From the IMG/VR virus record IMGVR_UViG_3300042526_000097, positions 1-64,000 of that record: 64,000 nt of DNA, one strand, 5' to 3'. The notes beneath the pieces are model-generated. The model was given only the letters and a program-made list of their open reading frames with translations. It was not told the DNA's origin and did no database searches. The position numbers were made by a program, and so were the translations under genes. The DNA comes from a virus. This document shows positions 4,698 through 58,930 of the stretch, one piece after another (within the stretch, counting starts at the first letter, position 1; the number at the start of each line of letters is the position of its first letter).

Positions 4698-4698
4698 T

Positions 4699-19435: not shown

Positions 19436-20253
19436 ATTTCAGATCCACAACCATAGATGATGTAATTAGTCGTATCATACGTAACACTAGACTACAGGAC
19501 TCTTCCTACATACAAGATATGATGGAATGGATACCTGAGGCTATGGGACAGATGAAGACTAAGAACCCTTTAAGTTATAGCTATGCTGACATAGACATAA
19601 CCTTTCATAAAGGGAAGATGCCTTGTGGACTTATATACATACTTGCAGTAGAGTACCAAGGTAGAAGACTACCGTACTCTAGTACAGCTAAAAACTATTT
19701 AACAGGTCATGCAATTAATGACAAGAATCTGGAAGGGGATTCTAGTACTACTAACCTGTTTACCTCTGTAATCCAGACCAACCCCAACGATACATATTTT
19801 GATCAAAACAACATCATGTGGTCGTCCACATTTACACCCATGAACAACCCAGAGGTTGTTATGAAATGTGATAGACACCCATCCCACTGGTATGCTACGG
19901 AAATGGACTGGATTACAACATCTGTGATTGATGGTACTTTTAGATTGCACTACTATTCTCAACCTACTGATGAGAATGGTATGCCTTTAATACCAGACAA
20001 TGAAAACTACAAAGAAGCTATTTACTGTTATGTAAGAGCTAAAATGATAGGAGCAGGTTATAATGACCTAGCCTATAAGGAGACTGACTTAATGCAACGA
20101 TTCGAAACCTATGCAAGAAGAGCTATCAATGAGATTACTTACCCTACTCCTGACCAAAAAGAACAACAGTTTAAAACCCAAGTCAGACTAATTCCACCGG
20201 CCAACTACTATGAAAATTTCTTCAGAGTAGATGAACATGAAAAACCTTACTAG
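19432..20253 (+). CDS. Probable connector/tail ring protein, 273 aa
   Basis: The N-terminal helices (VISRIIRNTRLQDSSYIQDM; EWIPEAMGQMKTKNPLSYSY) precede a beta core. A C-terminal helical segment (YKEAIYCYVRAKMIGAGYND; LMQRFETYARRAINEITYPT) follows, an arrangement typical of phage head-tail adaptor proteins. The position before the tail fibre agrees. It overlaps the previous gene by ATGA. Its end overlaps the longest reading of the tail fibre by 23 nt, but an ATG just after the stop (20255) would remove the overlap. Confidence 0.68.
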   Translation: MNFRSTTIDDVISRIIRNTRLQDSSYIQDMMEWIPEAMGQMKTKNPLSYSYADIDITFHKGKMPCGLIYILAVEYQGRRLPYSSTAKNYLTGHAINDKNLEGDSSTTNLFTSVIQTNPNDTYFDQNNIMWSSTFTPMNNPEVVMKCDRHPSHWYATEMDWITTSVIDGTFRLHYYSQPTDENGMPLIPDNENYKEAIYCYVRAKMIGAGYNDLAYKETDLMQRFETYARRAINEITYPTPDQKEQQFKTQVRLIPPANYYENFFRVDEHEKPY

Positions 20254-36554: not shown

Positions 36555-39500
36555 ATGGCACTAGACCCTACAGACTTATATGATGAAAACTTAGGAGCTG
36601 GAGATAATCCAGATCCTAATACTGCACCCCCACCGCCTAGTAAAAAGGGGTCTATAGATTTTAGTGATATCTATGCTCCAGCAGCTCCTTATCAAGGGGG
36701 AGATATATCTCAAAGACAAGCTGTTGACTATACAGGTTATTTACCTTATGGTCTAATGGAAGCTGAAGGTAGAAACCCTGAGTTAGAAAGAGGTGAGGCT
36801 CAACCTATGTATGAGAAGTTTGGTAATGCGGCTATGCAGACTGCTGTTAAGTTTGGTACTCAGTTAGTTGATATGGCCGGTGGACTTACTTCTTTAGCTA
36901 CTCAGTGGGGAGACAATAGGGACTATCAGAATGGTTTTACTAAAGCAGCTGATGAGACTAATGCTTGGTTAGAAAAGAACTTTCCATTATATAGAAGTAC
37001 TGAAGGTACATTTGGTTTAACAGATGCTTCTTGGTGGTTATCCAATACTGCAGGACTAGCAGCTTCTGTAGGGGGTTTTGCAATAGGTGGTATGGGTATA
37101 ACAAGTCTATTTGGAGCTATAGGTAAGTCGGTAGGATTAAGTGCCAGATTAGCTAGTGGATTAGTACAAGCAGGTGCAGACTTAGGTACTGCCTCTAAGA
37201 TAGTTGGTACCGGAGCAGAAGTCCTAACAGCTGGGACATTAGCCTATGCTGAAGGAGCTATGTCTGGTAGAGTAGTATACAATCAAGTCTACAATGCAAG
37301 GATAGCAGCAGGGGATAGTGAAGAAACTGCTAAGCACATGGCTGCACAATCAGCTGCTACTACAGTTCAATTAAATACTATAGTCAATACAGGTATGAAC
37401 ATGATTGGTGGTATGGGTATGTTCTTTAACCATGAGAAGGATGCTGTTTATAGAGTAGGTAGAAATGTACTTAAAGCAACTGAAGGTCAAACAGAGAAAG
37501 AGGCTGTTGAGGCTATAGGTAAGATGAAAGCAAGTGACTTTGCTACAGAACTAGGAACTAACATGACTCCTACAGGAAGAGTTGAGCACATACTCAAACA
37601 TACCCGTGAAGCAGTTGCAGAAGGTGTAGAAGAGATGACCAATCAATTCGCTGAACAAGTAGGTACTGAAGAGGGTAAGAAAGGAAAGACTCATGGATTC
37701 CTAGAACAACTTAGCCAACTAGACAACTACTTTAAGTATACAATGAATGAAGAAGGGGCACTTAACTTTGTAATGGGAGCTCTAGCCGGTCCTATACAGA
37801 ATGCAGTTGCTTCTCACATACCAATGCACAGAGTAGAGACTGGTAGTTATAGAACTGATCCAGTTACAAAAGAGTTAGTTGACAAAGATGGTAAGCCTGT
37901 ACAGAATGCAAAAGATGCAGCTAAGGAATACTATGAGAATGGTAAAAGACTAACCTCTGCTAAGAGGAATAGAATAATAACTGAACAAGACTTTGAAGGT
38001 GTTAAGAATAGAATAGTAGAAGATCTTAAATACATTGGAGATCAGAAGGAACAACTGGCAGAAGCTACCAAGAATGGAGACATTAAAAAAGCAGATGAGA
38101 TACGTGGTAACATCTTCAGTCTTATGAATCGTAATGCTGTACAGAATGGTATGTCTGCAAACTTAAAAGAATCCTATAGGTCCATAGCTGCCTTAGACAA
38201 TACCAAGACTGATACACAAGAACTAACTGAAAAGTTAGAAGATGCTGCTAAGTCTAGAGAAGAAGTAAAAGCTCAAGGGGGTGATACTACTGAGTTAGAT
38301 GCTGAGATAACTCAACTACAAGATGCTGTAAATAAATCCAAGAATCAAACATCGGCAATGATGTTAGGGTTTGCAGGTAAAGTTGGTGATATGTCTTATA
38401 AAGATAAGGCTGAAAAAGCAATGAAAGACCTGGACAACCTACAGTCTCTTTATGATAAGACTTTTGCCAAGTTTGGTATGGACAAGGACCATGGTAACTC
38501 TGAAGAGAAACATGTGGCAGACTTTATCTATCAGCTAGCTGCTGACAAGTATTTAACTCAATCAGCATTAGAAGATGCTAGAGCAGAACTAGGTAAAGAA
38601 GACAAAGACTCTGAACCTAGTATAGATATAAATCTAATGCTAGACTCTTATGCTGCGGCACATAAAGCATTAAGAGACAGAGCTCGTATACTTAGAAATG
38701 CACCACAAAGAGTTATTAATTATAATAAAATAATTGAGGAGTTAAACAGATTGTCTAATGAACCTCCTAGCTTAGCTAGAGATATGAGGTATGAAGAAAT
38801 CCTAAATCAGTTTGGGGTCACTATGACTATGGAAGGTGAGTCAGGAGAAACTGCAGGAGAAAGACTCAAAAGTTCATTAGAAAAAATGGGGAATAAGTTA
38901 GAAACTACTATTCAGTCCGCCTTACAACAAAACCTAGATGACCCTGAATTCCAAGAGTGGAAAAAGTCTCATCCTAATGACACATTAGAAGACTATATTA
39001 AGCATGTGAATAAAAACATGACTGACTCTATTTATCAACAACAATTAACTGATACCGTTGGAGAGTTAGAAGATAAGATAGGGGCCCTAGACGAAGTCTA
39101 TACTAATACTACTTCTCCTAAAGGTCTAGAGAAGTTAATGAGAAACTCTGCTAACTTCTATAAAGAACTGAGTAAGAAGTATGAGACTTTACAAAAAGCT
39201 TCTCAAACTAAAAGAAGAGAAGCATTAGTCAATGAGTCTGAGAAACAAGCCTACAATAGAAAGGTACGTAAAAGACTTAGAGACATGTACATGAAGAAGA
39301 TAGATGCATTAAAAGTAAGTGTAACTAGTCTTAATGCTGAACTGCAAAGATTGGCCCAAGAATTAATAGACAATCCTGAGAAAGCAATCTACATTGTAGA
39401 CAATATTCAAATCTTAAGGGACAAGATAAACTTAATGACTCAGGACATTACTAACTATACTGAGTATATTAATAGTCTACAAGATTCACTAGTTGCACCT

Positions 39501-42466: not shown

Positions 42467-45400
42467 ATGAGTTGTTATACTTCCCCTATTACTGGCCAAC
42501 CTTCTGTGTTGGCTCAGTTGCTTGACACTAACTACGGTCCAATGAAAAGAGACCGTATTATGTCTTACATATACTCTGACCAGTTCCTTAAAGAACATGG
42601 AGACTTCAGAAGTCCTATTACCAAGATACCATTAGACAGTATAGGGAAAGAGCCTAGCTTTGAGTGGGTACAGTCTTTGATAATAAACAAGCAAGACAGA
42701 ACTACAGGTCTAAATGAATTAAGTCAAAACCTTTTGGGCTTTCTAGATAAGTTAAATGTATCTACAGAGTTTAGAAGTGAATTACAAAGTGTCTCTGGAT
42801 ATAATGCTGCTTCATTAACAGACTTACTGTACAAAACTGTACTAGTAAGAAATGATTATAAGAACCCAGGTTTAGTTAAAGAAACAGCTTATGTAGCCTA
42901 TTCTTTTTTAGGTAAGAAGAACAAGATTAGAACTGATCTTATTAACAGTATTGAAAACTTTAAAAACTATCCAGAGCTATACCAAAAATATAAAGCAGCT
43001 AATGGCAGGTTATCAGACTATAAAATAAAAGAACTTATTGTAATTGACTACTTAGCTGATGCAATACAAAATGATTTTAAACATCCTAAGGACAGTTACA
43101 TAAATAGAGAAGCTGAGTACTGGCAGTTAAAGTCTGATTCTAAAATAGGTAGAGCTTTAGAGATATTACTTATAAAGTTTAAAAACTTCATTACAAACTT
43201 ATTCAATGTAAAGTTATCTGAACAAGAGTTAGATGCCCTAGTATCAGACTTAGCCCATGACATACTTACTAAAAACTTTCGAAAGTTTGGTAGTGAGTTA
43301 TCAGCAAAAGACCAGTTAACTAACTATGAAGACACAGTAGCAAAAGACCCAGTTGCAGGTAATATTATAGATAAGTTTACTGATAAATTAAAACTAGTAC
43401 TTACTGGGAGTTTATCGGCCAGATCACAAGGAACTTTCTACAGAAGCACAGAAGAAAACTTACATGACCTAGATTTTACGTACCAAGGAGGTAATGACCC
43501 TCAAGTATCTAAGTTCATACTAGATGTATACAGGAAATCTTCCTTAATGCCTTATGCAGATCGGCCTGCTTTCTTAAAGAAAAAGAGTACAGAACTTTTA
43601 AAAAGATTTCAAAACCACCCAGTTCTTTTAGGCATTAAACAAGAATTCCCAGATTTTAAGATAGAGAATGCCTTTATGAATAAGTCTGATAGGTTTACTA
43701 TTTCAGGTAGCATTGGAGAGCATGTTATAGATTTATTCTTTACACTTGATACTGATGTAGATTCTCATACACCTATGTTTCAAGACTGGGAAGCTACCTT
43801 TATTCAAAAGATAATAATGGGTAGACGTAAAGACATTAAAGACTTTGCCAACTTTATACCTTTCTTTACAACTCAAGGAAAAATAGCTCAAACAAAAGGA
43901 TTTAGACACTTTACATTTAAACCTATACTTAATAACCTAGAAGAATTAAGTCCTGAGATAGAAGAACAACTGCCTAGTGCAGAAGTTACCTTTGAGATGT
44001 TGAACCCTCAACAAAAACAGGCTTATAACAACACTATTAACTTCTTAAGCTCTCCTGAACAGTTACGTACTTTGTCAGGGTATGCAGGTACTGGTAAAAC
44101 AACTCTTACTAAATTCATTGTAGCAGATTTAAAAAGAAAAGGCATAAACTTTAAACTAGCTTCACCTACTCATAGGGCTAAAGAAGTATTACAGTCAAGT
44201 ACAAATGAACCTGCTATGACTGTAGCAAAGTTACTAGGATTAGGACCTGCTACAGAATTAGAAGACTTTAACTTGGTAGATAAGATATTTCAACCTGCTA
44301 GACCTGATGCAATGCCTTCAGGTGGTATAGTTATTATTGATGAAGCAAGTATGATCAATGATGACCTATTTGACTATCTTACTTCTTTAGCTGCTAGAAA
44401 GGGTTCTAAGATATTATTCATAGGAGATGATGCCCAGTTAAAGCCGGTTAAACAGAGAACTATATCTAAAGTATTTTCAGTTGAAGGCCAAGATAAGTTA
44501 ACTGAAGTGATGAGAACATCTAATGGTAATCCCATGCCTTCTGTAGTTCTTCAACCTATTAGAGATAATCAGAATTCTACTAGGGATATGTTTCCTCACA
44601 CTACAATGTTAAGTCCTTTTGGTGAGGGTATTGAATTTACAAAAGATGTTGATAGCTTTTTAGAAAAGTTAAGTGTTAGTGTAAAGGAAATGGTAAATTC
44701 GGGTAACCTTATGGCAGTTAGAGCTGCAGCCTATACCAATAAAGAAGTGGCTAACCTTAATAGCTACATCAGAGCAAAGATGTTTGGATTTGGTGCACCC
44801 AAGTTTGTAGAAGGTGAACTGATGATGATGTATGAGAATAGATTTTTTAGTGGGGGAGATTGGGTATTACCTAATGGGATGGACTTACTAGTTAGTAAAG
44901 TTAGCAGAATAGAAAATAAAAAGATTAAAAACCCTATTACTAATGAGTATATTATTCTATCTGGTTTTGAGTTAGATCTTCAAGGTGCTAAAGAAAAAGA
45001 GTTTAGAGAAACTGTATTTGTACCAGACACTGTACCAAAAGAGTATTTAATTGCTTTAAATGAACTTAAAGATAGAGCTATAAAAGCTTACAGTGCTGCA
45101 GATCGAGCAGCAGCTTGGAAGGATTTCTTTTCATTTGATGAGAAAGTATTTAGTATAAACCCATACTACTTGTATAATGATAACGTACTAGCCTCTCCTG
45201 ATGATTTTATTAATTTACTTAGACAAAACAACCCATCTCTAAGTTCTAAAGAAATTGAAAAGATATTAAATCAACATAAGTTCAAAGACAGAACTTTTAA
45301 CTATGGCTATGCTTTTACTATCCATAAAAGTCAGGGAGGTACTTATGATGAAGTGTTTGTAAATGAAGATGACGTAGATATTGCTAGTTCTTTTACTAAC

Positions 45401-48400
45401 CCTGACTGGCAGATGATTAACAGTCTTAAGTATGTAGGATTCTCTAGGTCATCTAAAAAGACTACAGTACTTTCTAAAAAAACTGATAACACTAATGCTG
45501 TTATACCAGAGACAATCTATGAAAAGCCTACTGCTCCCCCTCCACCACCTCCACCTCCTTTAAGTAATCTTACTGAAGATGAAATAGAACAACAATACCA
45601 AGAACTAGAAGATGAGTTAGACTTAAGTGACTACCCTCTAGTATCTTACCTTAAAGAAGATTATGAGGATGACAGTGTATCTCTTTTAGAAAATACTAAA
45701 TATTGGATCTCAGAACTTGAAAAGTTTAATAGTTTAAAATCACAAATTACTGAAGCTTTACAAGCAGGAGACAACGAGACAGCTCTTAATCTTAAGAAGT
45801 CTTTAGATAGTCTTACTAATACTGGTGAGTTTAACTATATAACTAGTTGGTATGAGCCTGACAGGGAACAGTTTAGAAAGAGTTCTGACTACATACAAGA
45901 AAAAGTAGATGTAGTTAAGGGTGACTTGGAATACCTTAAAGAAAGGTTAGAAGATGAAAGACAAAACTTAGTAAACTCTTTAACTGCTAGACAAACTGAT
46001 ACTGAACTTGGAGTCTATGAAGAGTTTGGAACATACTACAAGTTCAACACATCTCCTAGTGGTGTTATAACAGGAGAGTACAAACAGGGTAAAGATGGGG
46101 AGTGGAAACCTTTAAACAATAAGACTGCCCAAGACAAGCATGAAAGATTTGTAAGTCCTCCTCAAGCTCCTGTTCAACTTCAGCAACAGACTCTACCACC
46201 ACCACCCCCACCTCCTTCAGTTCAAACAACAGAACAAATATATTCTCAATTAGGAGATAAAACAAAATCTAAAGAAGCTCCAAATGTAATTCTTCCTGAA
46301 GATTTAGGTTTAAAATTTGATGGGTCACATAAATCTAACATGTGGACTGTACTTTCTCCAAACTTTAAAAAACAATACCCAAATGGAGTAATTGCATATA
46401 GAGGAAAAGTAGACAGTTCAGCAATTGGTAATCCTTTTTCTGTAACAAATAGAGGAGAAGATACTGTAAAACAATTTATAGAGTGGATTATAACAGGTAA
46501 CAATTTTGGAGTTGAAACCATACTAATGGGAGGTAAAAATTACAAGTTATCTGACCTTAGAAATGAGTACATTAATATAATTAAAAAAGCTAAAGGAGAA
46601 AAAATATTATATTATAAAGAGTTGGGGAGACCTTCTCATGCTACAGCTTTAGATTACTTAATTAACAGGTATAATTGGAATCAACCAACTGCTCAACAAA
46701 CTTCCCTACCTCCAGTTTCTTCTACACCTGCTATTGCAAATAAAGCTACTACTCAACCATCTACTAGTGTTGAAGTAATTCCTCTAAATGAATCACAAAG
46801 ATTTACTAGAGAATCAGCTGACACAGATAGCGAGTATATGTATTTATTTACAGATAATGCTGGTAGAACATCAGGCTCAGGAGTTATTGACCCTAACGGT
46901 TGGTATGCTAAAAAATATGGTGCAGATAAAAAATATGCAAGTAAAACACAAGCTGTAGCAAGAGGTCTTAATAATGTTTATCCTATTACTACAATGGTAG
47001 ATGATAAAAGAACTCAATGGACAGATGCTCAATTTGATACCTATAAAAAAATCATTGATGATGAGATAGCAACTATTAAAGAAGCATCTAAAAATTATAA
47101 AGGAATTAAGTTTGGTGCAGAAATGCCTTTTGGTAAAGGTGCAATTTCTAATATGAAAGATAGTGCTCCTAAAATATGGAATTATCTTAATACAAAACTT
47201 GCTGAAATAGGTATTGATAATACAGGAGATATGCCTATACCTACTCAACAATCTGCTAATCCTACTCAGCCTTCTGGTAACACAGCTAGTCCTGTAACTA
47301 TAGAGCCTTTAATCTTACCAGACAGTTTAACTGTAACTAAAAGATCAGAAGTAACCCAGGCTAATATAGACTCTATGAAGTCTACATTAAAGTTAGCCTT
47401 TGTAATGAAGGCTGCAGAGAATCCTACTCAACAGTTTAAAGTTCCTTGGCAGAACCCTTCTGCTAATAAGACTGTAGACAACTATGGATTCAATCAGTCA
47501 GACTATGCAAGGATAATGGATGAGATTCGTATGGAGATGGGGGATAGATTTCCTAGTAACCTTATATTCTTTCCTGCCTTTGAGTTTGCTATGAATAATA
47601 ACCCTGAGAGGTTAATGAAAGTCTATGCAGATAGGATAAAAGAATTTACAGCAGGTAGGTCAGCTCTACGTCTCAATGACTTAGAGATGGCTAAGATGAC
47701 TTCTAAGATGGAGATATCTATAACTACACCTGATGGTACTGTTGTAGATTACTTTACAAAGAGGCATGGCAGTGGAGCTCAAGAGGCTGTAGGTTCTCTA
47801 ATGCTTACTGCATTTCTAGACTTATACAATAAAGCCAATGGAAGAGTATCAGCTCCTCACTTAATTGGTCAAATACTATTAATGGCTAAAGGCCACTCTA
47901 ATATTGCAGGGCCTAACCAATCTGTGTGGACAGATATTGTCTCAAGCTTTACATTCAAAGGAGATGATCCTAAGTTGGGTTTACTTGACTTACTCTTTGA
48001 GAACCTAGCTCATCTAGGATACCGTATAGACTACAACAGCAAAGTAGCCTTAAAGGACTACTTCTCTGAGAAAAAGAATGACCCGGGCTTTATGCAATCA
48101 AACTTTGATAAGACTCTTAACTTAGAAGACAGTAAAGACTGGGAAAGAGATTACAATGACTATCTAGAAGATACCATAGACCTTATTGAGGTGGATGATA
48201 TGAAAGCTAAGACCTTAAGAGATTGGCAGGATAGTGCATTTGAAAGAAGTAGTAAAGACCAAGCAACTGCTAGGCTTAAACTATTTGTAGCTAATCAGAA
48301 GTTGATGGAAAGCTTTAGTGTTGGTGCAGTTAAATATGACCCTACTGATACTACTGCCATAGACTTGACAGATTCTATTAAGACTGTAGATACTATGACT

Positions 48401-51400
48401 CTAGCACAGGCTAGACAGATCAATGGTAAAAAAGTAATGCATAAGCAGTTCAGCCCTGAATACCTTGAGAAGACTATACTTGCCAAGTTTCCAAGAATAC
48501 CACAGAAGGGTCTCTTTGGATTCCCTAGCATTGTTCCGTTTGATACCTTGTATGAGAATACACAAGGAGTACTGTCTTCAATTCCAGGACTAGAATCAAA
48601 CATCAGTAAAGCAGTAGAACTACTAAGAGCTGAAGAAGATCCTAACCTTACAGAACTAGCAGACAGATTAGAGAAGGCTGATGGAAGAACTCAAAGAGAA
48701 TTCATTAAGGTAATGAACATGCAGTACAATGAGTTCTATGTAGTCAATATCAATAGAAGAACTAATAACGGTAACAACTACTCAGAGTCTAGAGTCTTTG
48801 GAGCACAAAGATATTCCCAAGACCAGATGATTGTAGAGAGATGGAAACAGTCTCAAGTCTTAGCTCCTATCATTAAGATAAGACCTAACGGTGAAAGAGT
48901 AATAGATGTAGACAGAGCTAGAGTGCATGCAGAAGTTATAAAGATCCTAAGTAAGTTAGATAGAGTAGATGAACTTACTGATGAGAATGTAATACCTTAT
49001 GCTATGATGTTAGCTCAAGAGGTAAACAAGTCCCCAGAACTTCAACAGTTCTTTGAAGGTATCAATTTAGTAGAGTTAGTAAATGAAGAGAGGGTACGTA
49101 CTAGATTACCTAAAGAAGCACAAAGGCTACAACAGAAATCTCTTATAGCAAAGATGTTTGCTGAGCATGGTATAGACCTAAACAGTAAAGTGCTAGATGA
49201 CTTAGCAGCCTACTACTATAAAGATGGTAGAAGAATGGATGCAGTCTCTAATAGTCTTAAGAATACTAAGATGAGATCTTCTTGGATAGGACAGTTCTCT
49301 GAAACAGAAAGTACTGGTAAACCAAATGGTATCTTCTCTGCTTTCTTCTATGCAGCTGCAGGGATGTCTAACAGTAATGACATTGACTCTGAAGTAACAG
49401 AAGACCTTGAAAATTCAGTAATACAAAACAATCCACTCTATACTGAATCTACTACCACTAAGATCCTTGCCAAGTTTGCACGTAAGCATGTAGACAAGTT
49501 GTTCAATGCAGTTCATACAAACTTAGAGGGTAAACAGATATGGGATTACTCCCTACCTACTTCTTTGAGTAGAGCAGTACTGGACCTAACTACTAATCAT
49601 AACAACTACACTGAGAAGTTAAAAGCAAGTGTATGGGGTAATAATCACTACTTAAAGGAGTCAAGACTATCTAACTTAAAGCTAGGATACTTTGAAGGTC
49701 TTAAGGTTGATAACTCTCAGACTGGTACTATACGTCAAAGAATGTCTGATAGACAACAGCTATTGTCCTCTATTCTTCTCTACCAAAACCAGGGTAGAGA
49801 CAGTGCCTTTATGGTATCACTTACCCATTCAGATAAAACAACTACACCTGTATTCTCTGGTATACCTAAAGTAAATGTAGTCTCTGATGAAGGTGGTATA
49901 TCAAAAGATGTTATAGAAGCTTTCTATACAATCTTTGAAGGAGAGTGGCAACGTATACTTCAAGTACAGAAGTTAAAGAAAGATCAAGGTACTACAGGTT
50001 CAAAGTCTATGGATACTAGTGGTCAACACTTCTTGTTACTTCCTAGTTTAAACTTTGAGAGTTTATCTGATGCTGAGAAGTTAGTTCTATTTGATGAAGA
50101 TGGAAATGTAAAAAGCTTTTTAGATGAAGCAGGAGTTGAGTTCATAAAGAGTAAGATAGGAAATTACTTGAATGTAATCTTTGATGATGCTAAAGCATAC
50201 TGGGAATCCAATGGAATTACTAATGAACTCTTAGACAGTACTTATCTAACTAAGGCTTATAAAACCTTACAAGGTACTGCAGCCCAAAAAGCTGAGATGG
50301 CATTAGATACTGCAATAGCTGATTATGTTTTCAACTCTACACTTTGGAACATGTCTTCAGCTATAATGTTGATGGGTGATCCAGCCAATGCTGCTTGGAA
50401 AGGTAATGTTGAAAAGACTATGGCTGAGTACACTAAACGTCTTGCTAAGGATATTGCACCTAGACAGCAGTTAATGTTTGAAAGACAAAGCTACTCTCAA
50501 TTGACTGTAGCTGATGTGGAGATGAAGTATGAGTATGCAACTAAGTTTGGTAGTAATGTACAGAAGTCAGTAGCTACAGATGCCCAAGAGTTAACAACTG
50601 TAAGAGAGCACTTAGATGTGATGAGAGCAGCTGGTAAGGTATCAGATGATATGTACAAGACTCTTATAGCTAAGGTTAACAAGTTTGATACTAAAGAAGA
50701 AGAAGACTTTACACCTGAAGAGTTGACAGCAATGTTAGAAGATGGTAGTGGTCCTATGCAACCTAACAAACCAATATATGCTGGAGTAAGGTTTAAGAAT
50801 GGACTAGTGCTCTATGACTATATTAAAAGTTCATCTGTACCTTTATTTCCTCAATTCACTAAGAACTCTGAGCTAGATAAGGTAAGGTTACTTATGGAAG
50901 GTAAAGTACCAGGGTTAGACAGGTTTAGTAGATTAGTATTTGAATCAGGTAGTAAAAATGGTAACTCTAATGACCCTTTAAAACTCTTCAGTGCTGATGG
51001 ATCTTTCTTAGAACCTACTCCTGAAAAGCTTATGTCTAATACCCGTATGCTTGATAGAGCTAACTTTGGTATACAACAAGAGGTTCCATTTGATATGAAC
51101 AAGGATGAGGTCAATGTAATTACTCAGATGGATAAACTTATTGTAGAGGGCATCTTAGGTATGGGTAACTTTACAATTGGTAATCAACTTGGGGTGTCAG
51201 GTTCACAGGTAAGAGCTATGAAGGAAGATACTCGTATCAAAGCTGCTAGAATTAAACTTAAAAAACTCTATGAGAAGTTAGGTGTAGCTGACAACACTAA
51301 GACTATCCCTGCTAGCAAAGTAATCAAGATGCTTATAGAGGCTGCAAGAGAGAGTGAGTTCTCTCCTAATGACATAGCCTTACTTGAGGATACTTTAAAG

Positions 51401-54400
51401 ATTACTAATGATGACAATGCTGTAGAAGTATCAACCTACCCACTATTCTTTCACTCAGCTGTAGAAAGGTTTGAGAAGTTAATACTAGCTAAGGTCAAGT
51501 CTATCACAGAGTTTAAGATGCCTGGTAAGTCTTATGTACAGGTATCTAGTATAGGATTAATACGTCAAGACAACCTATCTGATAAAGCTAGATTAGGTGT
51601 TATAACTGTAGGTGACTTTGACATGAGTAAACCTTTACGTCACATGCAGATTGATGAGACTACGGGAGAAGTAATCCCTGCACAAGTTATCATGCCATTC
51701 AACTTTATGATTGATGGCAAGAAAGCAGACATAAGAGATTACATAGTAGATGGTAAAATAGACTTAGATAGAATACCTAGAGAGTTACTACAGTTAGTAG
51801 GGGCCCGTATTCCAAACCAAGGTCACAACTCTATGATGGCTATAGAGATAGTAGGGTTTACACCAGACTGGATGGGGGATGCAATAATTGTACCTTCAGC
51901 TATTACAGGACAGATGGGGTCTGACTTTGACGTGGATAAGTTATTTACTTACCAAAGACCTTACATGCACAACAGTGCTACAGGTAAGTTTGAAACATAC
52001 CAAGAGACTGGTACTAACATAGGCTCTTCTCCAGAAGAGTTTGACGAGTTAGAGAACTTAGCCAATAAGAGAATGGAAGCCTTAGGATACAAGAAGAATG
52101 ATGATGGTAGTTTCCCTAGAAGAGAAGTACGTAGAACTGTAGAGACTATAGCTAAAGAAAGGTATGGTGATGAAGTACCTACACACCCTATAGAAAGAGG
52201 AGAAAAAACCTTAGAGGAATTACAACAAGACTATTTCAATATACACTGGGGAGTTCTTACACATCCTGAGATGTACACTAAGGTTATGAAAGCTTTAGAT
52301 AAAGGAGATTTAGGATTTGATAAAGGAGCAGCTAACAACTTGTTTGAACGTAAGTCAGAAGGACCTAATATGTTTTTCTCACCTATATCTCAATTGAAAA
52401 CTTTTCAATCAGGTAAGGATGCAAAGGACCTTGTAGGTATGACATCATTGTCTTCTACTTTTGATTCTAATCTACAGAATAGAAGCTTAAGACTAGGTAC
52501 TTATGTAAAAGATACTAAGTCAGGTGAAGTTTCTGAAGTAGAAGATTCAGTCTTATTAGATGGTATTGATCTTACTACAATCTCAGGTGAGGCATTGTCT
52601 CAAGGGTATGAATCTAAGTTCAACCCTGATGGTACTCCAGACTTTAGTACTTGGTATTCTAAACATGATAATATTACCATAGACCAGTCAGGTGCAGTAG
52701 ATAATGCCAAAGATAGAAGGTTAGATAACCTCAACATTACTATGGCTACTTACCCAGCTTTTGATGCTATGAATAAACTTCATGGTGAAACCAAAGATGG
52801 TAATAGATCTGTAAGTAAGTTGTTCCAATGTGCCCTTTCCAACCAAGATATACTAGTAGAGTATACTAGAGAGTACAGAAAAGGTAATGATAGTCTAAGT
52901 GAAGAAGAGGAATACAGTGTAGACTTAAGAAGTACTATAGTTAAGTCTTTAAAAGAAAAGTATAAGAAGCTTTATAAAGAATTAACAGGAAAAGATGCTA
53001 CTTGGGATGATACAAATGCAGTTAACCTAGACATGAAAACTCTAACAAAAGCATTTAAAGAATCTCAAAAAGGTGAGGCACTTAGTCCTGAGTACTACTT
53101 AACACAGCTTAAAGTTTTAAGTACTTTTGATTATCTATCTTCTATAGGAGAAAGACTTAGAGAGTTACAGAAGACTCTTAACCAAGATACCAATGGTGCC
53201 GGTCCTAACCTACTTTATGTTTTACAACAACTAGATAACTTTGACAACTTATACAAACAGAACTCTACTAAACTGTTTTTAAATGAAGACAGTCTTATAA
53301 GTGGACAGATGAAAGAGTTGTTTGATATGACTGTCCCTGTAGCTAAGGACCTTTTAAGTTCTGTCTTTCCTGTAGAAGCTATTAAAAATGTAGTAGGTAC
53401 AGTAGCATCTTACCAAGGTAAATCAATGAGTCAGTTATCTTTAAAGACTCAGAAAGATATAGTAAGACAGATGAGATCTTTCACTGTTTCAAGTTCTCCA
53501 GCTCTTGCTGTAGACACTACAACAGAAAGGGCTAGACTCTTGTACGGTACGGATACAGTAGACTCTTTAGCTAAACGTGTTGAGAGAGCTAAGATGCTTA
53601 ATCCTGATAACACTTTCCTCAAAAGATTAGACACTAAGATAAACACTGTAGGTAGAGGCCCTGACTTTGTTTCTACTATAATACAACGTAGCGGTAGAAT
53701 GACTGACAATGCAGTTATACAAGACTTTGCAAGATTGTTACAATCAAATGACCAGTTCTTAAGAGAGCTAGGAGAAGACTTAGTAAACTATGCTTTAACA
53801 CTTACACCTCAAGCTAGTTCTACTTCTATTGTAAGTAAGATACCTGCAGGGGTAATACTTGGTACAGACATAGCATCTCAGTTACGTTTTGAGGACACTG
53901 TACTTAAAGCTATGGGTAACATGCCTAAAGGATACATTGACCAATTACATCAACACAGTCCTTCTCTAGCTACCAAAGTAAGTAAGAAGATTATAAAGAA
54001 AGGTCTTTCTCAGTATGAGGTAGATGGTAGAGAATATCCTGAGGTACTAGCCTTACAAGTTAAACACTTAACAGCAATAGAGAAGATTCAACTTAGAACC
54101 TTTAAGCCTACTCCTATTGAAGAGAAGTTTGCACCATACTTAAGGTTCTATAGTAAAGAAGAAGGTAAAACTATACTTTATAAACTAGTGTCAGAAGGAA
54201 ACTTCTTAACCTACCAACGTATAGATACCTTAGGTAAGAAAGGGGTAGTAGAATACAACTCAAGTGTTCAAGGGCCAGTACGTTCTTTGTTCCCAGAAAA
54301 TAGAGCAGCCTTTGACTATAAGTCAGAAGAGGTATTAAGGTCTCTAGAAGTTGCTACTGAAGATTTGATTAACAAGACTAGTGATCCAAACAATGCTTAC

Positions 54401-57400
54401 AGTAGATGGGGTATTACAGATGGAGGACAGGATGTTCTTACTAGAGGACTAGAGCAACTATCAGCTGATAGCAGTGTACCTACTTACTTAAGAACTTTAT
54501 CACAAGCCTTAGCAGAAACAGCTGAGAGAACTTCAGACTTAGAAGCTAGAATGTCAATGGACTACGCACTGAACCCTTTGACAGTTAAAACTACTACAAG
54601 TGGGGGTAGAGGCAGTTATAATGCTGGAAGTAATACTCTATCTTTACGTTTAAATGCTGATGTAAAGAAATCTGCAGTAGTCCTACTACATGAGACTCTA
54701 CATCAGAGATCTAGTGCACTGCTTCATGCATTAGGTTGGGTATCTAGAGAAAGGTTGAAGATACAGAATAGTGGTATGTCTGAAGAGACATTTGAAAAAC
54801 TGTGGCAAGAGTATCAGACTAAGTCGTTAGAGTTTGCTAAAAAGAACCCTGAGGTTTATGAGAAAGTAAAGGAGTTAGACAGATTACGTTTACAAGCATT
54901 TGAACAGTTAAAGGCTCAGCTAATATCTCAAGGTATTGACATGGATGCTAAGATGCAGGACATCTTTAGAGACAAAATAGATGGTAGTAAGGAAGACAAG
55001 TTACTCTACAGTCTATCTAGTATGTCTGAGTTCATAGCTCATAACCTTACTGACTCAGACATGATGGAGTTTCTCAACACTGTAGAGTCTACAACTGAAA
55101 GTTCTTTTATTGACAGGTTAATAGACAGCTTCCTTAACTTCTTCTCAGAGATGATTAATGCTCTAGGAATAAACTACAATGATAAGAGTATACTAAAAGA
55201 ATGTCTAGCACTGACTTATGACATCACCGGCTTGAATAATACAGAAAGACTACAAGGTATAAATGAAAACTTTGCACCTCAATCAGTCTTTGCAGACACT
55301 GAGTCAATGGCCAATCATCTACAGAATACTATAGAAAATGTATACAATCAGAATGTAGTTAGAACAGATAATCATCTAGGACATCTGTTGAACATAGAAG
55401 AGAAGTTACCTAGCACTCCATTTACAGGAGGAACTGAATTCTTTAATGAGACTATTAATAAACTCTCAAGACAACTCCAACAGTTAGACAATACTATGGC
55501 ACGTCCAGTAGTAACTGATGAAGACCGTAAGCGTAGAAACCAGGCTTTGTTAATATACAATGAAGCTAAAGAGGACTATGATAAACTGTCTACTTCTAAG
55601 GATGAGATGCAGATGATGGATACTGCTACAAGACAACTAGAGTGGGTTAAATCTGTAGTATCTAAACCTTCTATTCACTTACAAGAAGTTACAATAGCTT
55701 GGTCTATACTAGATACTTGGGGTAGTATGTCTGATATCTACACTACTAACTATATACCAGGTGATGTAGTTAAAGAGACTCTACAGAATGTAGAAGGTCT
55801 TGCTACTATACTCTCTAAGCAAATGCTTAAGCAAAGTATGTTCAGTGTAATTACAGCAGGAGAAAGACAAACAAATATTAAGTTAACTCCTGAAGACTTA
55901 GGTCTTAACTTAAAAGAGTTAGGGTGGCTAGAGAAAGAGGTTATAGCTTTAGAAAGAGATATGAACAAGGCTAGTCAGATGTTGACTACGTTTGCTCAGT
56001 ATCAAGTACAGAATGCCCAATCACAGTTTAGGGATTTAACTAATACACTTAAAGAGTTTAAGAAACTAGTTGATCCATCTGACTATAGTAAGTTCATACA
56101 AGAGAATGAAGAAGGAAGTGTCTTTGGTCTTGTACAAGAGTTACATCCTAACTGGTTTAAGAAGACAGCTGGTGCCAGGTATCAACTTAAGAGTTGGTTA
56201 GAGGGTATGTTTGGATTAGACATGAAAGATCCTCTTCAAAGAGCTAGAAGATTAGATGGTGCAAAGGCAGCATACAATGCTTTCTGGAAAGACATGTTAG
56301 CAACTGGGGAAGTAGTAAGAATAGATAAACTACTAGACCTTGCAACAGGAGACCTTAGAACAGATCCTGAAGCTTTAGCAGAGATAGCTAGACTTAAAGC
56401 TGCTTCTAGAGAGAATCTAGTAGATGATATCATAGCTAAGTCTCAAGCAGACTATAAGAAGTACCTAGGTCTTAAGGCAGCAAAGGAAGAAGAGATTGAT
56501 AACAGTGAAAAGACAGCTGACTTTAACCTTACGCCTGCTGAAGAGATAGCCTATATGGCAATGTCCCCTGCAGACCAACTGACCTTTAAGCTTAGTACTA
56601 TCTTAAGACTTACTGTAGCTATGAAGGAACAAAAGAAAAGAGAGTGGGAATACTTTAACTCTCCTGTCAACTTCCTTAATACTATGCCTCAAGCAAGTGT
56701 ATCTATTGATGAGAATCTCTACTTACAAAATGGTAGATTCAAACCTTGGTTTGTACCTAAGAACATACCTGAGAACTTTGATAAGAAGTATGACATCATC
56801 AACAATAATGCTAACCTTAAGAAAGGGTATGACATACTCAAAAACTTATCAGAACAGTTTAGGTCTTATTTACCACCTACAATAGCAGAGAACTTACATG
56901 AGAACTTCTTACCTATTATCAGTCCTGAGATGATGGCAGAAGCTAGTGGGACACTAAGCAGACTTAAACAAACAGGTGTAGGTAGATCAATGCTTAACTC
57001 TATTTCAAGCTCTAGGACAGAGACTATGAAAAGAGATGAGGGTGGTATTCCTATCTCTTATGTTAGTGAGGCCCCAAGAGTTATAGATTCAAGAGGTAAA
57101 AGAACTAAGAAGATAGACATGTCTAAAGTAAGTACTGACTTACCTAGAATGTTTGAGATGTTTGGTGAGATGGCTATACATTACAATGCTATGTACCCGG
57201 TTGGGGAGATCATGGATGTAGCTAAGAGGTTAGTTATGGAAGAGAACAAGAACCGTGCAGCTAGAGGAGATAAAGGCCTTCCTAATCTAGTTAACTTAAT
57301 GAAGTTCTATCAAGATGCTGTAGTCTATAGAAAGTCTAAGCAACTAGAGGGTGTAGATACTACTCCTGTATATAGCCTTAACCCTATGAAGCACTATGCT

Positions 57401-58930
57401 AGAAAAGCAGAGATGGCTGGTCTAGTAACTGAGTTAGGTAAAGTGAATGAAGAGATAATCCTTAAACGTGTAGATGCAGACTCAGATCCTAACAACCCTT
57501 TATTTCAAAGAAGGAAGGAACTAGAGGAACGTATCAAGCTTATACAAGGAGAAGCTAGGTATGTTACAGCCTCTAAAGTGGGTGATACTATGATTAACTT
57601 CCAACAGTTAAAGAGTATGTCATACAACCCATTCTCAGCAGTATCTAACCTTACCTTTGGGTATGTTGCTACATACATACATGCAAGGGGATTCAGAGCT
57701 GATAAGGATGGCTTCACTACTGGGGACTATACAAGACAGCAATTGCAACAGGCTTACAATATGATGAAAGGTAACATAGCCAACTCATGGTTAAAGGCCT
57801 TTGGGTATTCTCACTCTGACCTATCTAGAAAGATATCAGCACTCATCACAAGAGCTAATGCTATTGAGGCCTTAATAGATACTAGGTTTGGTGGTTCTAA
57901 TCTTACAGAAAATGCTAGCAATTTAAAGAAGTTCTTAGATCCTACAGCTGCTCAGAAGTCTGGTGACTGGTTAACTAAAGGAGCAGTCATTGTAGCTCGA
58001 GCCCTTAATACACCTGTACAAGTTACAGTTAATGGAGAAGTTAAAACTATCAATTTGTTTGAAGCTTTGAATATAGAAGGAGAATGGGATGCAGACAAGT
58101 ATGGTGAGAACAAAGAGTGGAGTTCTAAGAATCCTTCAGAGCAAGTAGGTTGGAATAAGTATCTCTTTAGAACTAGAAAGGTGATGTTATTAATATTTGG
58201 TAACCAAGATAAGAACATACCTCTAAGTGCTAGAAGTTCTATATGGGGTAGGTTGCTTGGACAGTTCAGGTTATCTTGGATTCCAGAAGGTATCAAGACT
58301 AGATGGGGAGCTAACCAAGGGTATGATGAAATACTAGAAAGAGAGTTAGAGGGTAGATACAGAACTATGCTACGTATGCCTGGCTTTGGTTTACCTTTAA
58401 TACTCAAGCAGATGGCTAGTGTAGTTACAGGTCAAGATGCCTTTGAAGGAACTAAAGTTACTTACACTGAGGGTGGTATAGAAAAGACTAGAGATATCAA
58501 AGACTTTGAAAAGGAGAACATGAGAAGGAATATGGCTGGTATGGCCTACACTGCTCTGTTTGCTTCAATGTACTATCTACTCAAGGCTGCAATACCTGAT
58601 GAAGAAGAACTTAGAAAGTTAAGAAGACAAGGTAAGAACCCTGCTACATCCTCTAGGATAGCTGCTAACATTGCCTATAGAAGCTTTCAGGATCTTATAC
58701 TGTATGCAAGTCCTGATATGTTTGAACAGATTACAGGTAATGTAGTTCCTGCATGGTCAGTAGTTTCAGACTTTAAGAAGGCTCTTGCTGCTTGGCATAG
58801 AATAGCTTTTGATGACAAGTATGAATGGGAAGACTTACTTCTTAAACAGACTAAAGCATTTCCATTTACTAACCTGGCTAACAAGTGGGAATTCTACTCT
58901 TCACATGATATAAGTGCTGCAGTAAGATAA
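42467..58930 (+). CDS. 5,487-aa giant virion polyprotein: NTase-like, SF1B helicase, RNA polymerase core, zincin motif
   Basis: One uninterrupted frame. Domains in order: nucleotidyltransferase-like (TGSLSAR at 313-319, LHDLDF with D334/D336); complete Dda/RecD-like helicase (GYAGTGKTT 538-546, IIDEASM with D625, FIGDDAQLKPV, FTIHKSQGGTYDEV, KYVGFSRS near 985); Pro runs near 1023 and 1243 framing linkers; a DUF4326-like module (IAYRGKVDSSAIGNPF to YYKELGRPSHATALDYL, ~1305-1405); a module starting YLFTDNAGRTSGSG (~1457-1590); an RNA polymerase beta-prime-like core (ARIPNQGHN, R3114, then GSDFDVDK with D3153/D3155/D3157); a zincin motif HETLH (H4075-H4079); and a C-terminal hydrophobic helix near 5355. 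Probably packaged and injected for early transcription. It may be cleaved into parts by its own or another protease. Confidence 0.85.
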   Translation: MSCYTSPITGQPSVLAQLLDTNYGPMKRDRIMSYIYSDQFLKEHGDFRSPITKIPLDSIGKEPSFEWVQSLIINKQDRTTGLNELSQNLLGFLDKLNVSTEFRSELQSVSGYNAASLTDLLYKTVLVRNDYKNPGLVKETAYVAYSFLGKKNKIRTDLINSIENFKNYPELYQKYKAANGRLSDYKIKELIVIDYLADAIQNDFKHPKDSYINREAEYWQLKSDSKIGRALEILLIKFKNFITNLFNVKLSEQELDALVSDLAHDILTKNFRKFGSELSAKDQLTNYEDTVAKDPVAGNIIDKFTDKLKLVLTGSLSARSQGTFYRSTEENLHDLDFTYQGGNDPQVSKFILDVYRKSSLMPYADRPAFLKKKSTELLKRFQNHPVLLGIKQEFPDFKIENAFMNKSDRFTISGSIGEHVIDLFFTLDTDVDSHTPMFQDWEATFIQKIIMGRRKDIKDFANFIPFFTTQGKIAQTKGFRHFTFKPILNNLEELSPEIEEQLPSAEVTFEMLNPQQKQAYNNTINFLSSPEQLRTLSGYAGTGKTTLTKFIVADLKRKGINFKLASPTHRAKEVLQSSTNEPAMTVAKLLGLGPATELEDFNLVDKIFQPARPDAMPSGGIVIIDEASMINDDLFDYLTSLAARKGSKILFIGDDAQLKPVKQRTISKVFSVEGQDKLTEVMRTSNGNPMPSVVLQPIRDNQNSTRDMFPHTTMLSPFGEGIEFTKDVDSFLEKLSVSVKEMVNSGNLMAVRAAAYTNKEVANLNSYIRAKMFGFGAPKFVEGELMMMYENRFFSGGDWVLPNGMDLLVSKVSRIENKKIKNPITNEYIILSGFELDLQGAKEKEFRETVFVPDTVPKEYLIALNELKDRAIKAYSAADRAAAWKDFFSFDEKVFSINPYYLYNDNVLASPDDFINLLRQNNPSLSSKEIEKILNQHKFKDRTFNYGYAFTIHKSQGGTYDEVFVNEDDVDIASSFTNPDWQMINSLKYVGFSRSSKKTTVLSKKTDNTNAVIPETIYEKPTAPPPPPPPPLSNLTEDEIEQQYQELEDELDLSDYPLVSYLKEDYEDDSVSLLENTKYWISELEKFNSLKSQITEALQAGDNETALNLKKSLDSLTNTGEFNYITSWYEPDREQFRKSSDYIQEKVDVVKGDLEYLKERLEDERQNLVNSLTARQTDTELGVYEEFGTYYKFNTSPSGVITGEYKQGKDGEWKPLNNKTAQDKHERFVSPPQAPVQLQQQTLPPPPPPPSVQTTEQIYSQLGDKTKSKEAPNVILPEDLGLKFDGSHKSNMWTVLSPNFKKQYPNGVIAYRGKVDSSAIGNPFSVTNRGEDTVKQFIEWIITGNNFGVETILMGGKNYKLSDLRNEYINIIKKAKGEKILYYKELGRPSHATALDYLINRYNWNQPTAQQTSLPPVSSTPAIANKATTQPSTSVEVIPLNESQRFTRESADTDSEYMYLFTDNAGRTSGSGVIDPNGWYAKKYGADKKYASKTQAVARGLNNVYPITTMVDDKRTQWTDAQFDTYKKIIDDEIATIKEASKNYKGIKFGAEMPFGKGAISNMKDSAPKIWNYLNTKLAEIGIDNTGDMPIPTQQSANPTQPSGNTASPVTIEPLILPDSLTVTKRSEVTQANIDSMKSTLKLAFVMKAAENPTQQFKVPWQNPSANKTVDNYGFNQSDYARIMDEIRMEMGDRFPSNLIFFPAFEFAMNNNPERLMKVYADRIKEFTAGRSALRLNDLEMAKMTSKMEISITTPDGTVVDYFTKRHGSGAQEAVGSLMLTAFLDLYNKANGRVSAPHLIGQILLMAKGHSNIAGPNQSVWTDIVSSFTFKGDDPKLGLLDLLFENLAHLGYRIDYNSKVALKDYFSEKKNDPGFMQSNFDKTLNLEDSKDWERDYNDYLEDTIDLIEVDDMKAKTLRDWQDSAFERSSKDQATARLKLFVANQKLMESFSVGAVKYDPTDTTAIDLTDSIKTVDTMTLAQARQINGKKVMHKQFSPEYLEKTILAKFPRIPQKGLFGFPSIVPFDTLYENTQGVLSSIPGLESNISKAVELLRAEEDPNLTELADRLEKADGRTQREFIKVMNMQYNEFYVVNINRRTNNGNNYSESRVFGAQRYSQDQMIVERWKQSQVLAPIIKIRPNGERVIDVDRARVHAEVIKILSKLDRVDELTDENVIPYAMMLAQEVNKSPELQQFFEGINLVELVNEERVRTRLPKEAQRLQQKSLIAKMFAEHGIDLNSKVLDDLAAYYYKDGRRMDAVSNSLKNTKMRSSWIGQFSETESTGKPNGIFSAFFYAAAGMSNSNDIDSEVTEDLENSVIQNNPLYTESTTTKILAKFARKHVDKLFNAVHTNLEGKQIWDYSLPTSLSRAVLDLTTNHNNYTEKLKASVWGNNHYLKESRLSNLKLGYFEGLKVDNSQTGTIRQRMSDRQQLLSSILLYQNQGRDSAFMVSLTHSDKTTTPVFSGIPKVNVVSDEGGISKDVIEAFYTIFEGEWQRILQVQKLKKDQGTTGSKSMDTSGQHFLLLPSLNFESLSDAEKLVLFDEDGNVKSFLDEAGVEFIKSKIGNYLNVIFDDAKAYWESNGITNELLDSTYLTKAYKTLQGTAAQKAEMALDTAIADYVFNSTLWNMSSAIMLMGDPANAAWKGNVEKTMAEYTKRLAKDIAPRQQLMFERQSYSQLTVADVEMKYEYATKFGSNVQKSVATDAQELTTVREHLDVMRAAGKVSDDMYKTLIAKVNKFDTKEEEDFTPEELTAMLEDGSGPMQPNKPIYAGVRFKNGLVLYDYIKSSSVPLFPQFTKNSELDKVRLLMEGKVPGLDRFSRLVFESGSKNGNSNDPLKLFSADGSFLEPTPEKLMSNTRMLDRANFGIQQEVPFDMNKDEVNVITQMDKLIVEGILGMGNFTIGNQLGVSGSQVRAMKEDTRIKAARIKLKKLYEKLGVADNTKTIPASKVIKMLIEAARESEFSPNDIALLEDTLKITNDDNAVEVSTYPLFFHSAVERFEKLILAKVKSITEFKMPGKSYVQVSSIGLIRQDNLSDKARLGVITVGDFDMSKPLRHMQIDETTGEVIPAQVIMPFNFMIDGKKADIRDYIVDGKIDLDRIPRELLQLVGARIPNQGHNSMMAIEIVGFTPDWMGDAIIVPSAITGQMGSDFDVDKLFTYQRPYMHNSATGKFETYQETGTNIGSSPEEFDELENLANKRMEALGYKKNDDGSFPRREVRRTVETIAKERYGDEVPTHPIERGEKTLEELQQDYFNIHWGVLTHPEMYTKVMKALDKGDLGFDKGAANNLFERKSEGPNMFFSPISQLKTFQSGKDAKDLVGMTSLSSTFDSNLQNRSLRLGTYVKDTKSGEVSEVEDSVLLDGIDLTTISGEALSQGYESKFNPDGTPDFSTWYSKHDNITIDQSGAVDNAKDRRLDNLNITMATYPAFDAMNKLHGETKDGNRSVSKLFQCALSNQDILVEYTREYRKGNDSLSEEEEYSVDLRSTIVKSLKEKYKKLYKELTGKDATWDDTNAVNLDMKTLTKAFKESQKGEALSPEYYLTQLKVLSTFDYLSSIGERLRELQKTLNQDTNGAGPNLLYVLQQLDNFDNLYKQNSTKLFLNEDSLISGQMKELFDMTVPVAKDLLSSVFPVEAIKNVVGTVASYQGKSMSQLSLKTQKDIVRQMRSFTVSSSPALAVDTTTERARLLYGTDTVDSLAKRVERAKMLNPDNTFLKRLDTKINTVGRGPDFVSTIIQRSGRMTDNAVIQDFARLLQSNDQFLRELGEDLVNYALTLTPQASSTSIVSKIPAGVILGTDIASQLRFEDTVLKAMGNMPKGYIDQLHQHSPSLATKVSKKIIKKGLSQYEVDGREYPEVLALQVKHLTAIEKIQLRTFKPTPIEEKFAPYLRFYSKEEGKTILYKLVSEGNFLTYQRIDTLGKKGVVEYNSSVQGPVRSLFPENRAAFDYKSEEVLRSLEVATEDLINKTSDPNNAYSRWGITDGGQDVLTRGLEQLSADSSVPTYLRTLSQALAETAERTSDLEARMSMDYALNPLTVKTTTSGGRGSYNAGSNTLSLRLNADVKKSAVVLLHETLHQRSSALLHALGWVSRERLKIQNSGMSEETFEKLWQEYQTKSLEFAKKNPEVYEKVKELDRLRLQAFEQLKAQLISQGIDMDAKMQDIFRDKIDGSKEDKLLYSLSSMSEFIAHNLTDSDMMEFLNTVESTTESSFIDRLIDSFLNFFSEMINALGINYNDKSILKECLALTYDITGLNNTERLQGINENFAPQSVFADTESMANHLQNTIENVYNQNVVRTDNHLGHLLNIEEKLPSTPFTGGTEFFNETINKLSRQLQQLDNTMARPVVTDEDRKRRNQALLIYNEAKEDYDKLSTSKDEMQMMDTATRQLEWVKSVVSKPSIHLQEVTIAWSILDTWGSMSDIYTTNYIPGDVVKETLQNVEGLATILSKQMLKQSMFSVITAGERQTNIKLTPEDLGLNLKELGWLEKEVIALERDMNKASQMLTTFAQYQVQNAQSQFRDLTNTLKEFKKLVDPSDYSKFIQENEEGSVFGLVQELHPNWFKKTAGARYQLKSWLEGMFGLDMKDPLQRARRLDGAKAAYNAFWKDMLATGEVVRIDKLLDLATGDLRTDPEALAEIARLKAASRENLVDDIIAKSQADYKKYLGLKAAKEEEIDNSEKTADFNLTPAEEIAYMAMSPADQLTFKLSTILRLTVAMKEQKKREWEYFNSPVNFLNTMPQASVSIDENLYLQNGRFKPWFVPKNIPENFDKKYDIINNNANLKKGYDILKNLSEQFRSYLPPTIAENLHENFLPIISPEMMAEASGTLSRLKQTGVGRSMLNSISSSRTETMKRDEGGIPISYVSEAPRVIDSRGKRTKKIDMSKVSTDLPRMFEMFGEMAIHYNAMYPVGEIMDVAKRLVMEENKNRAARGDKGLPNLVNLMKFYQDAVVYRKSKQLEGVDTTPVYSLNPMKHYARKAEMAGLVTELGKVNEEIILKRVDADSDPNNPLFQRRKELEERIKLIQGEARYVTASKVGDTMINFQQLKSMSYNPFSAVSNLTFGYVATYIHARGFRADKDGFTTGDYTRQQLQQAYNMMKGNIANSWLKAFGYSHSDLSRKISALITRANAIEALIDTRFGGSNLTENASNLKKFLDPTAAQKSGDWLTKGAVIVARALNTPVQVTVNGEVKTINLFEALNIEGEWDADKYGENKEWSSKNPSEQVGWNKYLFRTRKVMLLIFGNQDKNIPLSARSSIWGRLLGQFRLSWIPEGIKTRWGANQGYDEILERELEGRYRTMLRMPGFGLPLILKQMASVVTGQDAFEGTKVTYTEGGIEKTRDIKDFEKENMRRNMAGMAYTALFASMYYLLKAAIPDEEELRKLRRQGKNPATSSRIAANIAYRSFQDLILYASPDMFEQITGNVVPAWSVVSDFKKALAAWHRIAFDDKYEWEDLLLKQTKAFPFTNLANKWEFYSSHDISAAVR

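What the first reader, a model, noticed from the sequence alone, without database searches (positions are those of the whole stretch)
42467..58930. A 5,487-aa protein joining nucleotidyltransferase, helicase, RNA polymerase and peptidase parts
A single 16.5-kb frame holds a GS...DLD nucleotidyltransferase-like motif, all main motifs of an SF1B helicase, two small accessory modules, the RNA polymerase RxP...DFDxD core and an HExxH zincin motif. crAss-like phages are known to carry very large RNA-polymerase-bearing virion proteins. What stands out is a complete helicase and a nucleotidyltransferase-like domain N-terminal to the polymerase in one chain. It suggests an injected machine that unwinds, modifies and transcribes, perhaps cut into parts by the internal peptidase.
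Basis: partly seen in the sequence, partly recalled or inferred. Interest (0 to 1): 0.85.

Follow-up and report, generated by a model that had tools for sequence, protein, structure and literature searches.

The report
Phage-injected RNA polymerase with swappable cargo slot
A crAss-like phage encodes one 5,487-residue protein, probably packed in its particle and injected into the host, whose RNA-polymerase core is shared with known relatives but whose front end holds an exchangeable set of enzymes, here a nucleotidyltransferase and a helicase that its closest relatives lack at that place.

Summary
Window 42467-58930 is one open frame of 5,487 aa with a nucleotidyltransferase (NTase), a complete Dda-type SF1 helicase, a small unassigned domain, DUF7831, the crAss-type RNA polymerase (hits 6VR4, E 2e-35), an HExxH zincin domain and a helical C-terminus.

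Relatives show how it is built. A ~57-aa head, the polymerase, zincin and C-terminus form one conserved chain in six related contigs. The stretch between head and polymerase (aa ~58-1590) is a variable slot: about 40 aa in L025, other domains in the rest (DUF7831, NADAR, zincin), NTase plus helicase only here. The cassette has lower GC than head and core.

Helicase-polymerase fusion is not new: cr118_1, cr50_1 and 12 of 56 contig clusters carry a helicase, always C-terminal to the polymerase. The window's helicase is sister to one of those (L081), although the two polymerases belong to different clades: the module appears to have moved and changed ends.

The NTase belongs to a family absent from Pfam and PHROGs, found in seven more phage contigs (five with a crAss polymerase).

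Best reading: an injected virion RNA polymerase of polyvalent-protein type with an exchangeable effector slot. Virion packaging, enzyme activities and proteolytic cutting are inferred.

The parts
42467..58930 (+). whole 5,487-aa protein
   Evidence: collinear single frames in L012 (4,713 aa) and L013 (5,053 aa)
42467..42637 (+). conserved head, aa 1-57 (MSCYTSPITGQPSVLAQLLD...HGDF)
   Evidence: 35-59% identity in L012, L013, L024, L025, L026, L027; GC 0.40
42638..47236 (+). variable N-terminal cassette slot, aa 58-1590
   Evidence: not shared with relatives except DUF7831 in L026; other or almost no content there; GC 0.32-0.36 and codon usage of aa 58-1005 outside the range of core windows
42638..43966 (+). 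NTase module: helical part plus Pol-beta-type NTase core (aa 58-500; GS 314, HDLD 333, third D 422)
   Evidence: 7 homologous phage contigs, 28-51% identity; AF2 and Foldseek point to NTases weakly
43967..45481 (+). SF1B Dda-type helicase, aa 501-1005
   Evidence: tree
46337..46756 (+). unassigned ~140-aa domain, aa 1291-1430
   Evidence: no Pfam match; also beside DUF7831 in L041, C-terminal to the polymerase
46757..47236 (+). DUF7831 domain, aa 1431-1590
   Evidence: Pfam PF25176 E 3.6e-8; also L026, cr130_1 gp79, L041
47237..54466 (+). RNA polymerase region, aa 1591-4000
   Evidence: phi14:2 gp66, E 1e-25 over aa 2524-3602; 6VR4 E 2e-35
51923..51937 (+). DFDVD catalytic motif, aa 3153-3157
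   Evidence: aligned with DFDID 1361-1365 of phi14:2 gp66
54467..55186 (+). zincin-like metallopeptidase domain, aa 4001-4240, HETLH at 4075 (54689-54703)
   Evidence: HExxH in L012, L013, L024, L025, L026, L027; downstream Glu 4188 invariant in three; Pfam DUF6782 only below cut-off
55187..58927 (+). gp65-like helical C-terminal region, aa 4241-5487
   Evidence: homologous to a separate downstream gene in other lineages; ends ...SAAVR in window and L013...SSAVR in L012
36555..42464 (+). upstream 1,969-aa gene, gp47-like; C-terminal part (aa ~1700-1900) is another mobile module
   Evidence: matches the N-terminal part of polymerase giants in other lineages, and crAss001 gp47 weakly; aa 1701-1743 are 84% identical to L012 giant aa 416-458

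Best explanation
This is the virion RNA polymerase protein of a divergent crAss-like phage. In this lineage the phi14:2 gp66-type polymerase and the gp65-type partner are joined in one chain with a zincin near their junction, and the chain starts with a short conserved head. Between head and polymerase is a variable slot in which unrelated enzyme modules are gained, lost and exchanged among phages; here it holds an NTase module, a Dda-type helicase, a small unassigned domain and DUF7831. Most likely the protein is packed in the capsid and ejected with, or ahead of, the DNA. The polymerase then transcribes early genes, while the cassette enzymes ride along and act in the first minutes of infection: the helicase clearing or opening the incoming DNA, the NTase modifying a host or phage nucleic acid or small molecule. 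Shown here: architecture, homology, slot variability, compositional difference, module movement. Inferred: packaging, ejection, activity and the job of each cassette enzyme.
For: Polymerase homology to the solved phi14:2 RNAP; the phi14:2 gp65-gp67 homologs are annotated from MS/MS proteomics, and crAss001 gp47, gp49 and gp50 were found in virions (PMC10172136). Slot: head and core shared, middle not, in six relatives. Cassette GC 0.32-0.36 (GC3 0.11-0.26) against head 0.40 and core 0.36-0.38; codon distance of aa 58-1005 0.238 against at most 0.194 for core windows. Module movement: helicase sister to L081's (100/99), while the polymerases lie in separate supported clades (99/95 and 97/93); an ART-like module at 84% identity in different genes of the window phage and L012; the NTase module at the start of gp49/gp65-like genes and inside an RNAP chain in other phages. 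The clade relatives with a helicase hit have only free-standing ones (471-522 aa frames); the window genome has a free-standing one plus this one.
Against: No virion proteomics exists for this phage. No second assembly carries exactly this cassette, so a local chimera is not formally excluded. The helicase motifs are intact but a function in cis with the polymerase is unproven; most polymerase giants lack a fused helicase (44 of 56 clusters).
Confidence: 0.75

Rival explanations
1. Integrated machine: the fused helicase works in cis with the polymerase, opening double-stranded or protein-covered phage DNA for early transcription, and the NTase processes or tags the transcripts.
For: Helicases are fused to crAss polymerase chains in several lineages, with at least two label changes forced by supported branches; Dda-type helicases act on DNA in T4 (established knowledge).
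Against: The cassette is absent from the closest relatives; the helicase can be at either end of the polymerase; most related giants lack it.
Confidence: 0.2
2. Counter-defence cargo: the cassette enzymes protect the incoming genome or disarm host immunity, and the polymerase is only the carrier.
For: Other occupants of the same slot include NADAR (L013, E 5e-15), whose family reverses guanine ADP-ribosylation (PMC11543638, PMC11125620 abstracts); polyvalent proteins are proposed to counter defence (PMC5512222).
Against: Helicase and NTase have no direct link to a defence system here; PADLOC was not searched.
Confidence: 0.35
3. The frame is an assembly or annotation fusion of separate genes.
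For: No independent assembly holds the identical cassette; GC shifts at the head/cassette border.
Against: Collinear single frames in independent contigs from head to last residue; the NTase also starts just behind the head of cargo genes in other phages; 16.5 kb without a stop.
Confidence: 0.04

Closest known systems
Virion RNA polymerase of Cellulophaga phage phi14:2 (gp66, PDB 6VR4) and crAss001 gp50
   Same: polymerase region and DFDxD active site, position after the structural genes, neighbouring gp65/gp67-like and gp49/gp47-like parts
   Different: gp66 is 2,180 aa with the gp65-like partner as a separate gene and no helicase hit; here polymerase and partner are one chain with a large N-terminal cassette
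cr118_1 gp14 and cr50_1 gp59 (Suoliviridae; annotated exonuclease V / DNA helicase)
   Same: giant polymerase chain (4,946 and 4,774 aa) with a fused Dda-type helicase
   Different: helicase at the C-terminal end, no NTase hit, following ~1,400-1,700-aa gene separate instead of fused
Polyvalent proteins (Iyer et al. 2017), including N4-type virion RNA polymerase proteins
   Same: very large multidomain virion-region protein mixing nucleic-acid enzymes, effector domains and a zincin
   Different: polymerase is the crAss two-barrel type, not N4-like; N-terminal NTase-helicase slot between a conserved head and the polymerase
P23-45 gp96, tail tape measure fused to a virion RNA polymerase (5,002 aa)
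   Same: giant virion protein carrying a polymerase
   Different: fused to a tape measure protein, unrelated architecture (PMC10770324)

Membership tests
crAss-type virion RNA polymerase | two-barrel polymerase homologous to phi14:2 gp66 with DxDxD motif | tested here: met
   6VR4 E 2e-35; DFDVD aligned with DFDID
crAss-type virion RNA polymerase | present in the virion and transcribes early genes | not testable with these tools
   known for phi14:2 and crAss001 homologs only
Crassvirales | crAss-type TerL, portal, major capsid protein and transcription block | tested here: met
   TerL 31-32% identity to crAss phages in the top hits, 138 records covering at least 80%; portal and capsid PHROGs E 2e-88 and 2e-69
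Dda-type SF1B helicase | all helicase motifs and family profile | tested here: met
   PHROG Dda-like helicase E 5e-74, motifs intact
Pol-beta-type nucleotidyltransferase superfamily | GS...DxD...D catalytic pattern | tested here: met
   invariant in 9 aligned copies
Pol-beta-type nucleotidyltransferase superfamily | significant profile or fold match to a known member | tested here: inconclusive
   no Pfam, PHROG or PDB sequence match; Foldseek top hits mostly NTases (ANT(2'')-Ia, CCA-adding, TUTases) but best E 0.04
Zincin metallopeptidase | HExxH plus downstream Glu, conserved | tested here: met
   Pfam match only below cut-off, so fold and activity are not shown
Polyvalent proteins | several unrelated effector domains in one chain, encoded next to virion genes | tested here: met
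Polyvalent proteins | transferred into the host | not testable with these tools
   inferred from homologs

The most novel reading that the evidence does not exclude
crAss virion polymerase proteins carry exchange slots that phages load with injected enzymes, and the NTase module is a previously undescribed family of phage-injected nucleotidyltransferase effectors, preferentially sited behind the conserved head of these proteins.
Probability: 0.45. Interest if true: 0.7.

Novelty: new variant of a known kind. Interest (0 to 1): 0.58.

Why it matters
crAss-like phages dominate the human gut virome and depend on injected giant proteins. Showing that the polymerase chain has a defined site where enzymes are swapped, with near-empty and filled versions and a helicase that moved from one end to the other between lineages, turns a loose idea of multidomain proteins into a testable system: the slot can be emptied or exchanged and the effect on early infection measured. 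It also yields an NTase family of unknown function that was in neither Pfam nor PHROGs.

Tried and rejected
BLAST of aa 1-500 against deposited phages and IMG/VR found nothing; a degenerate DNA pattern for QGTx8LHDLDF then found seven true homologs. The first NTase model, from a single sequence, was poor and its fold search meaningless; the nine-sequence model was better. A search of bacterial genomes with the polymerase profile found no relative. I first took the 470-nt gap splitting the polymerase in some contigs for an intron; Rfam found none and the gap is an open ferritin-like gene. I provisionally called the aa 1291-1430 domain DUF4326-like, but Pfam does not support it. The helical part before the NTase looks like a degenerate zincin by eye; not demonstrated. 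Fusion by misassembly was judged unlikely because of the collinear relatives.

Full report
What is there. The frame 42467-58930 (+) is real and unbroken. The window lies in an 89,418-base IMG/VR virus record. Terminase (31-32% identity to crAss phages in the top hits), portal and capsid profiles identify a divergent crAss-like phage. In the protein, Pfam and PHROGs find a Dda-type helicase (aa ~501-1005), DUF7831 and a virion-protein profile over the polymerase. The polymerase matches phi14:2 gp66 over aa 2524-3602, and the family profile hits its solved structure 6VR4 at 2e-35. The catalytic DFDVD aligns with DFDID of gp66.

How it is built. Two IMG/VR contigs, L012 and L013, encode single frames of 4,713 and 5,053 aa that match the window protein over the head (aa 1 to ~47-130) and from aa ~1593 to the last residue, and not between. 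A polymerase profile brought in 72 contigs. The combination head + polymerase + zincin + gp65-like tail in one chain is confined to the window's clade: L012, L013, L024/L027, L025, L026 (L051 belongs by its polymerase but is cut). The space between head and polymerase is about 40 aa in L025, about 240 in L024, DUF7831 only in L026, an HExxH domain plus other modules in L012, an HExxH domain, NADAR and more in L013, and about 1,530 aa in the window. Head GC is 0.40 and core 0.36-0.38, but the cassette is 0.32-0.36, and the codon usage of aa 58-1005 lies outside the range of core windows of equal length. This is a site of module exchange.

Gene borders differ among lineages. In other crAss-like contigs the gp47-like part is the N-terminus of the polymerase giant and the gp65-like part is a separate downstream gene; in the window clade the gp47-like part is its own gene (36555-42464) and the gp65-like part is fused behind the polymerase.

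Helicase. A helicase fused to a crAss polymerase chain is not new: cr118_1 gp14 (aa 4439-4898 of 4,946) and cr50_1 gp59 (4249-4705 of 4,774) have one, and so do 12 of 56 dereplicated contig clusters, every time C-terminal to the polymerase. Only the window has it N-terminal. The window helicase is sister to the C-terminal one of L081 (47-49% identity, support 100/99) and not to the free-standing helicase of its own genome, which groups with the free-standing ones of L012 and L013. In the polymerase tree the window is sister to L012 in a clade of seven (99/95), while L081 lies in another supported clade (97/93). The two trees disagree, so the helicase moved between lineages, or both took it from a common source, with a change of end. 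Relatives with a helicase hit carry only free-standing copies.

NTase. Protein searches failed, but a DNA pattern for its core motif found seven more viral contigs, all homologous (28-47% identity for the core, up to 51% over aa 57-499). G-S, H-D-L-D, the third Asp and the GRxKD motif are invariant. No Pfam or PHROG family covers it. An AF2 model with nine sequences has a fairly confident core (pLDDT mostly ~77-94), and most top Foldseek hits are nucleotidyltransferases (ANT(2'')-Ia prob 0.90, CCA-adding 0.77, TUTases), but none is significant: fold class likely, function open. Five of these seven phages also carry a crAss polymerase (the sixth hit there is L081, a helicase contig). In G005 and G006 the module is at or near the start of the gp49/gp65-like gene, twice in tandem in G006; in G007 it lies inside an RNAP chain between two polymerase segments.

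Mechanism. crAss001 virions contain gp45-gp47, gp49 and gp50, thought to be ejected partly unfolded before the DNA (PMC10172136); phi14:2 gp65-gp67 are annotated from MS/MS proteomics, and the polymerase transcribes early genes (PMC7886860, PMC10136315). By homology the window protein should be cargo too. Polyvalent proteins are the matching concept: injected multidomain chains with zincins and early-acting enzymes (PMC5512222). I therefore read the cassette as injected enzymes riding on the polymerase. Whether the helicase serves the polymerase in cis or protects the DNA is undecided. Peptidase cutting is possible but untested.

Novelty. Giant multidomain crAss transcription proteins are known (PMC7886860; polymerase genes up to ~6,000 aa, PMC10136315). 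New here, as far as the searched papers and collections show, are the defined slot with near-empty and filled states, the N-terminal NTase-helicase cassette, the tree evidence for module movement, and the NTase family. Figure 3 of PMC7886860 shows domains that I could not see, so partial overlap is possible.

Noticed in passing
L049, L050, L053, L068-L071, L075, L077, L081, L089 (e.g. L049:3113-16697): The crAss-type polymerase is split into two genes upstream of the DFDxD barrel (near window aa ~2943), recalling the bacterial beta/beta' split, with a ~158-aa ferritin-like gene (Pfam Ferritin E 3e-12, tested in L049) in between; the second half starts with M-(A/S)-C or similar.
   Followed up: partly
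starts of gp65/gp49-like and polymerase genes in many loci: These proteins tend to start M-x(1-4)-C (MSCY, MACK, MKCPN, MAKKC...): 42 of 73 in a loosely defined group against 4 of 33 gp47-like starts; 27 of 79 other long ORFs also had it, so the grouping is rough. Possible packaging or processing signal.
   Followed up: partly
window 41655-42251 and L012 giant aa 416-555: An ART-like module at the end of the upstream gp47-like gene is 84% identical over 43 aa to one in the N-terminal slot of the L012 giant, while the giants' cores are 46-49% identical.
   Followed up: partly
L127:3551-12661 (-): NTase, zincin and a gp47-like piece lie between two polymerase segments of a 3,037-aa RNAP chain (gap at crAss001 gp50 aa ~1158-1202).
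   Followed up: partly
L115 (3,096-aa frame): Two tandem diverged copies of the NTase module in one gp49-like protein.
   Followed up: no
L064 and L065: Near-identical polymerases; in L065 the helicase is in the same 5,398-aa frame, in L064 it is in a separate frame: recent split or sequencing frameshift.
   Followed up: no
cr130_1 gp79 (NC_055901.1): 5,801-aa polymerase giant with 74 in-frame stops under table 11 (recoded stop codon likely) and DUF7831 at its C-terminus.
   Followed up: no
window 20231-25327: 1,698-aa gene with only a weak peptidase-family match (E 2e-5) over ~40 residues; rest unassigned.
   Followed up: no
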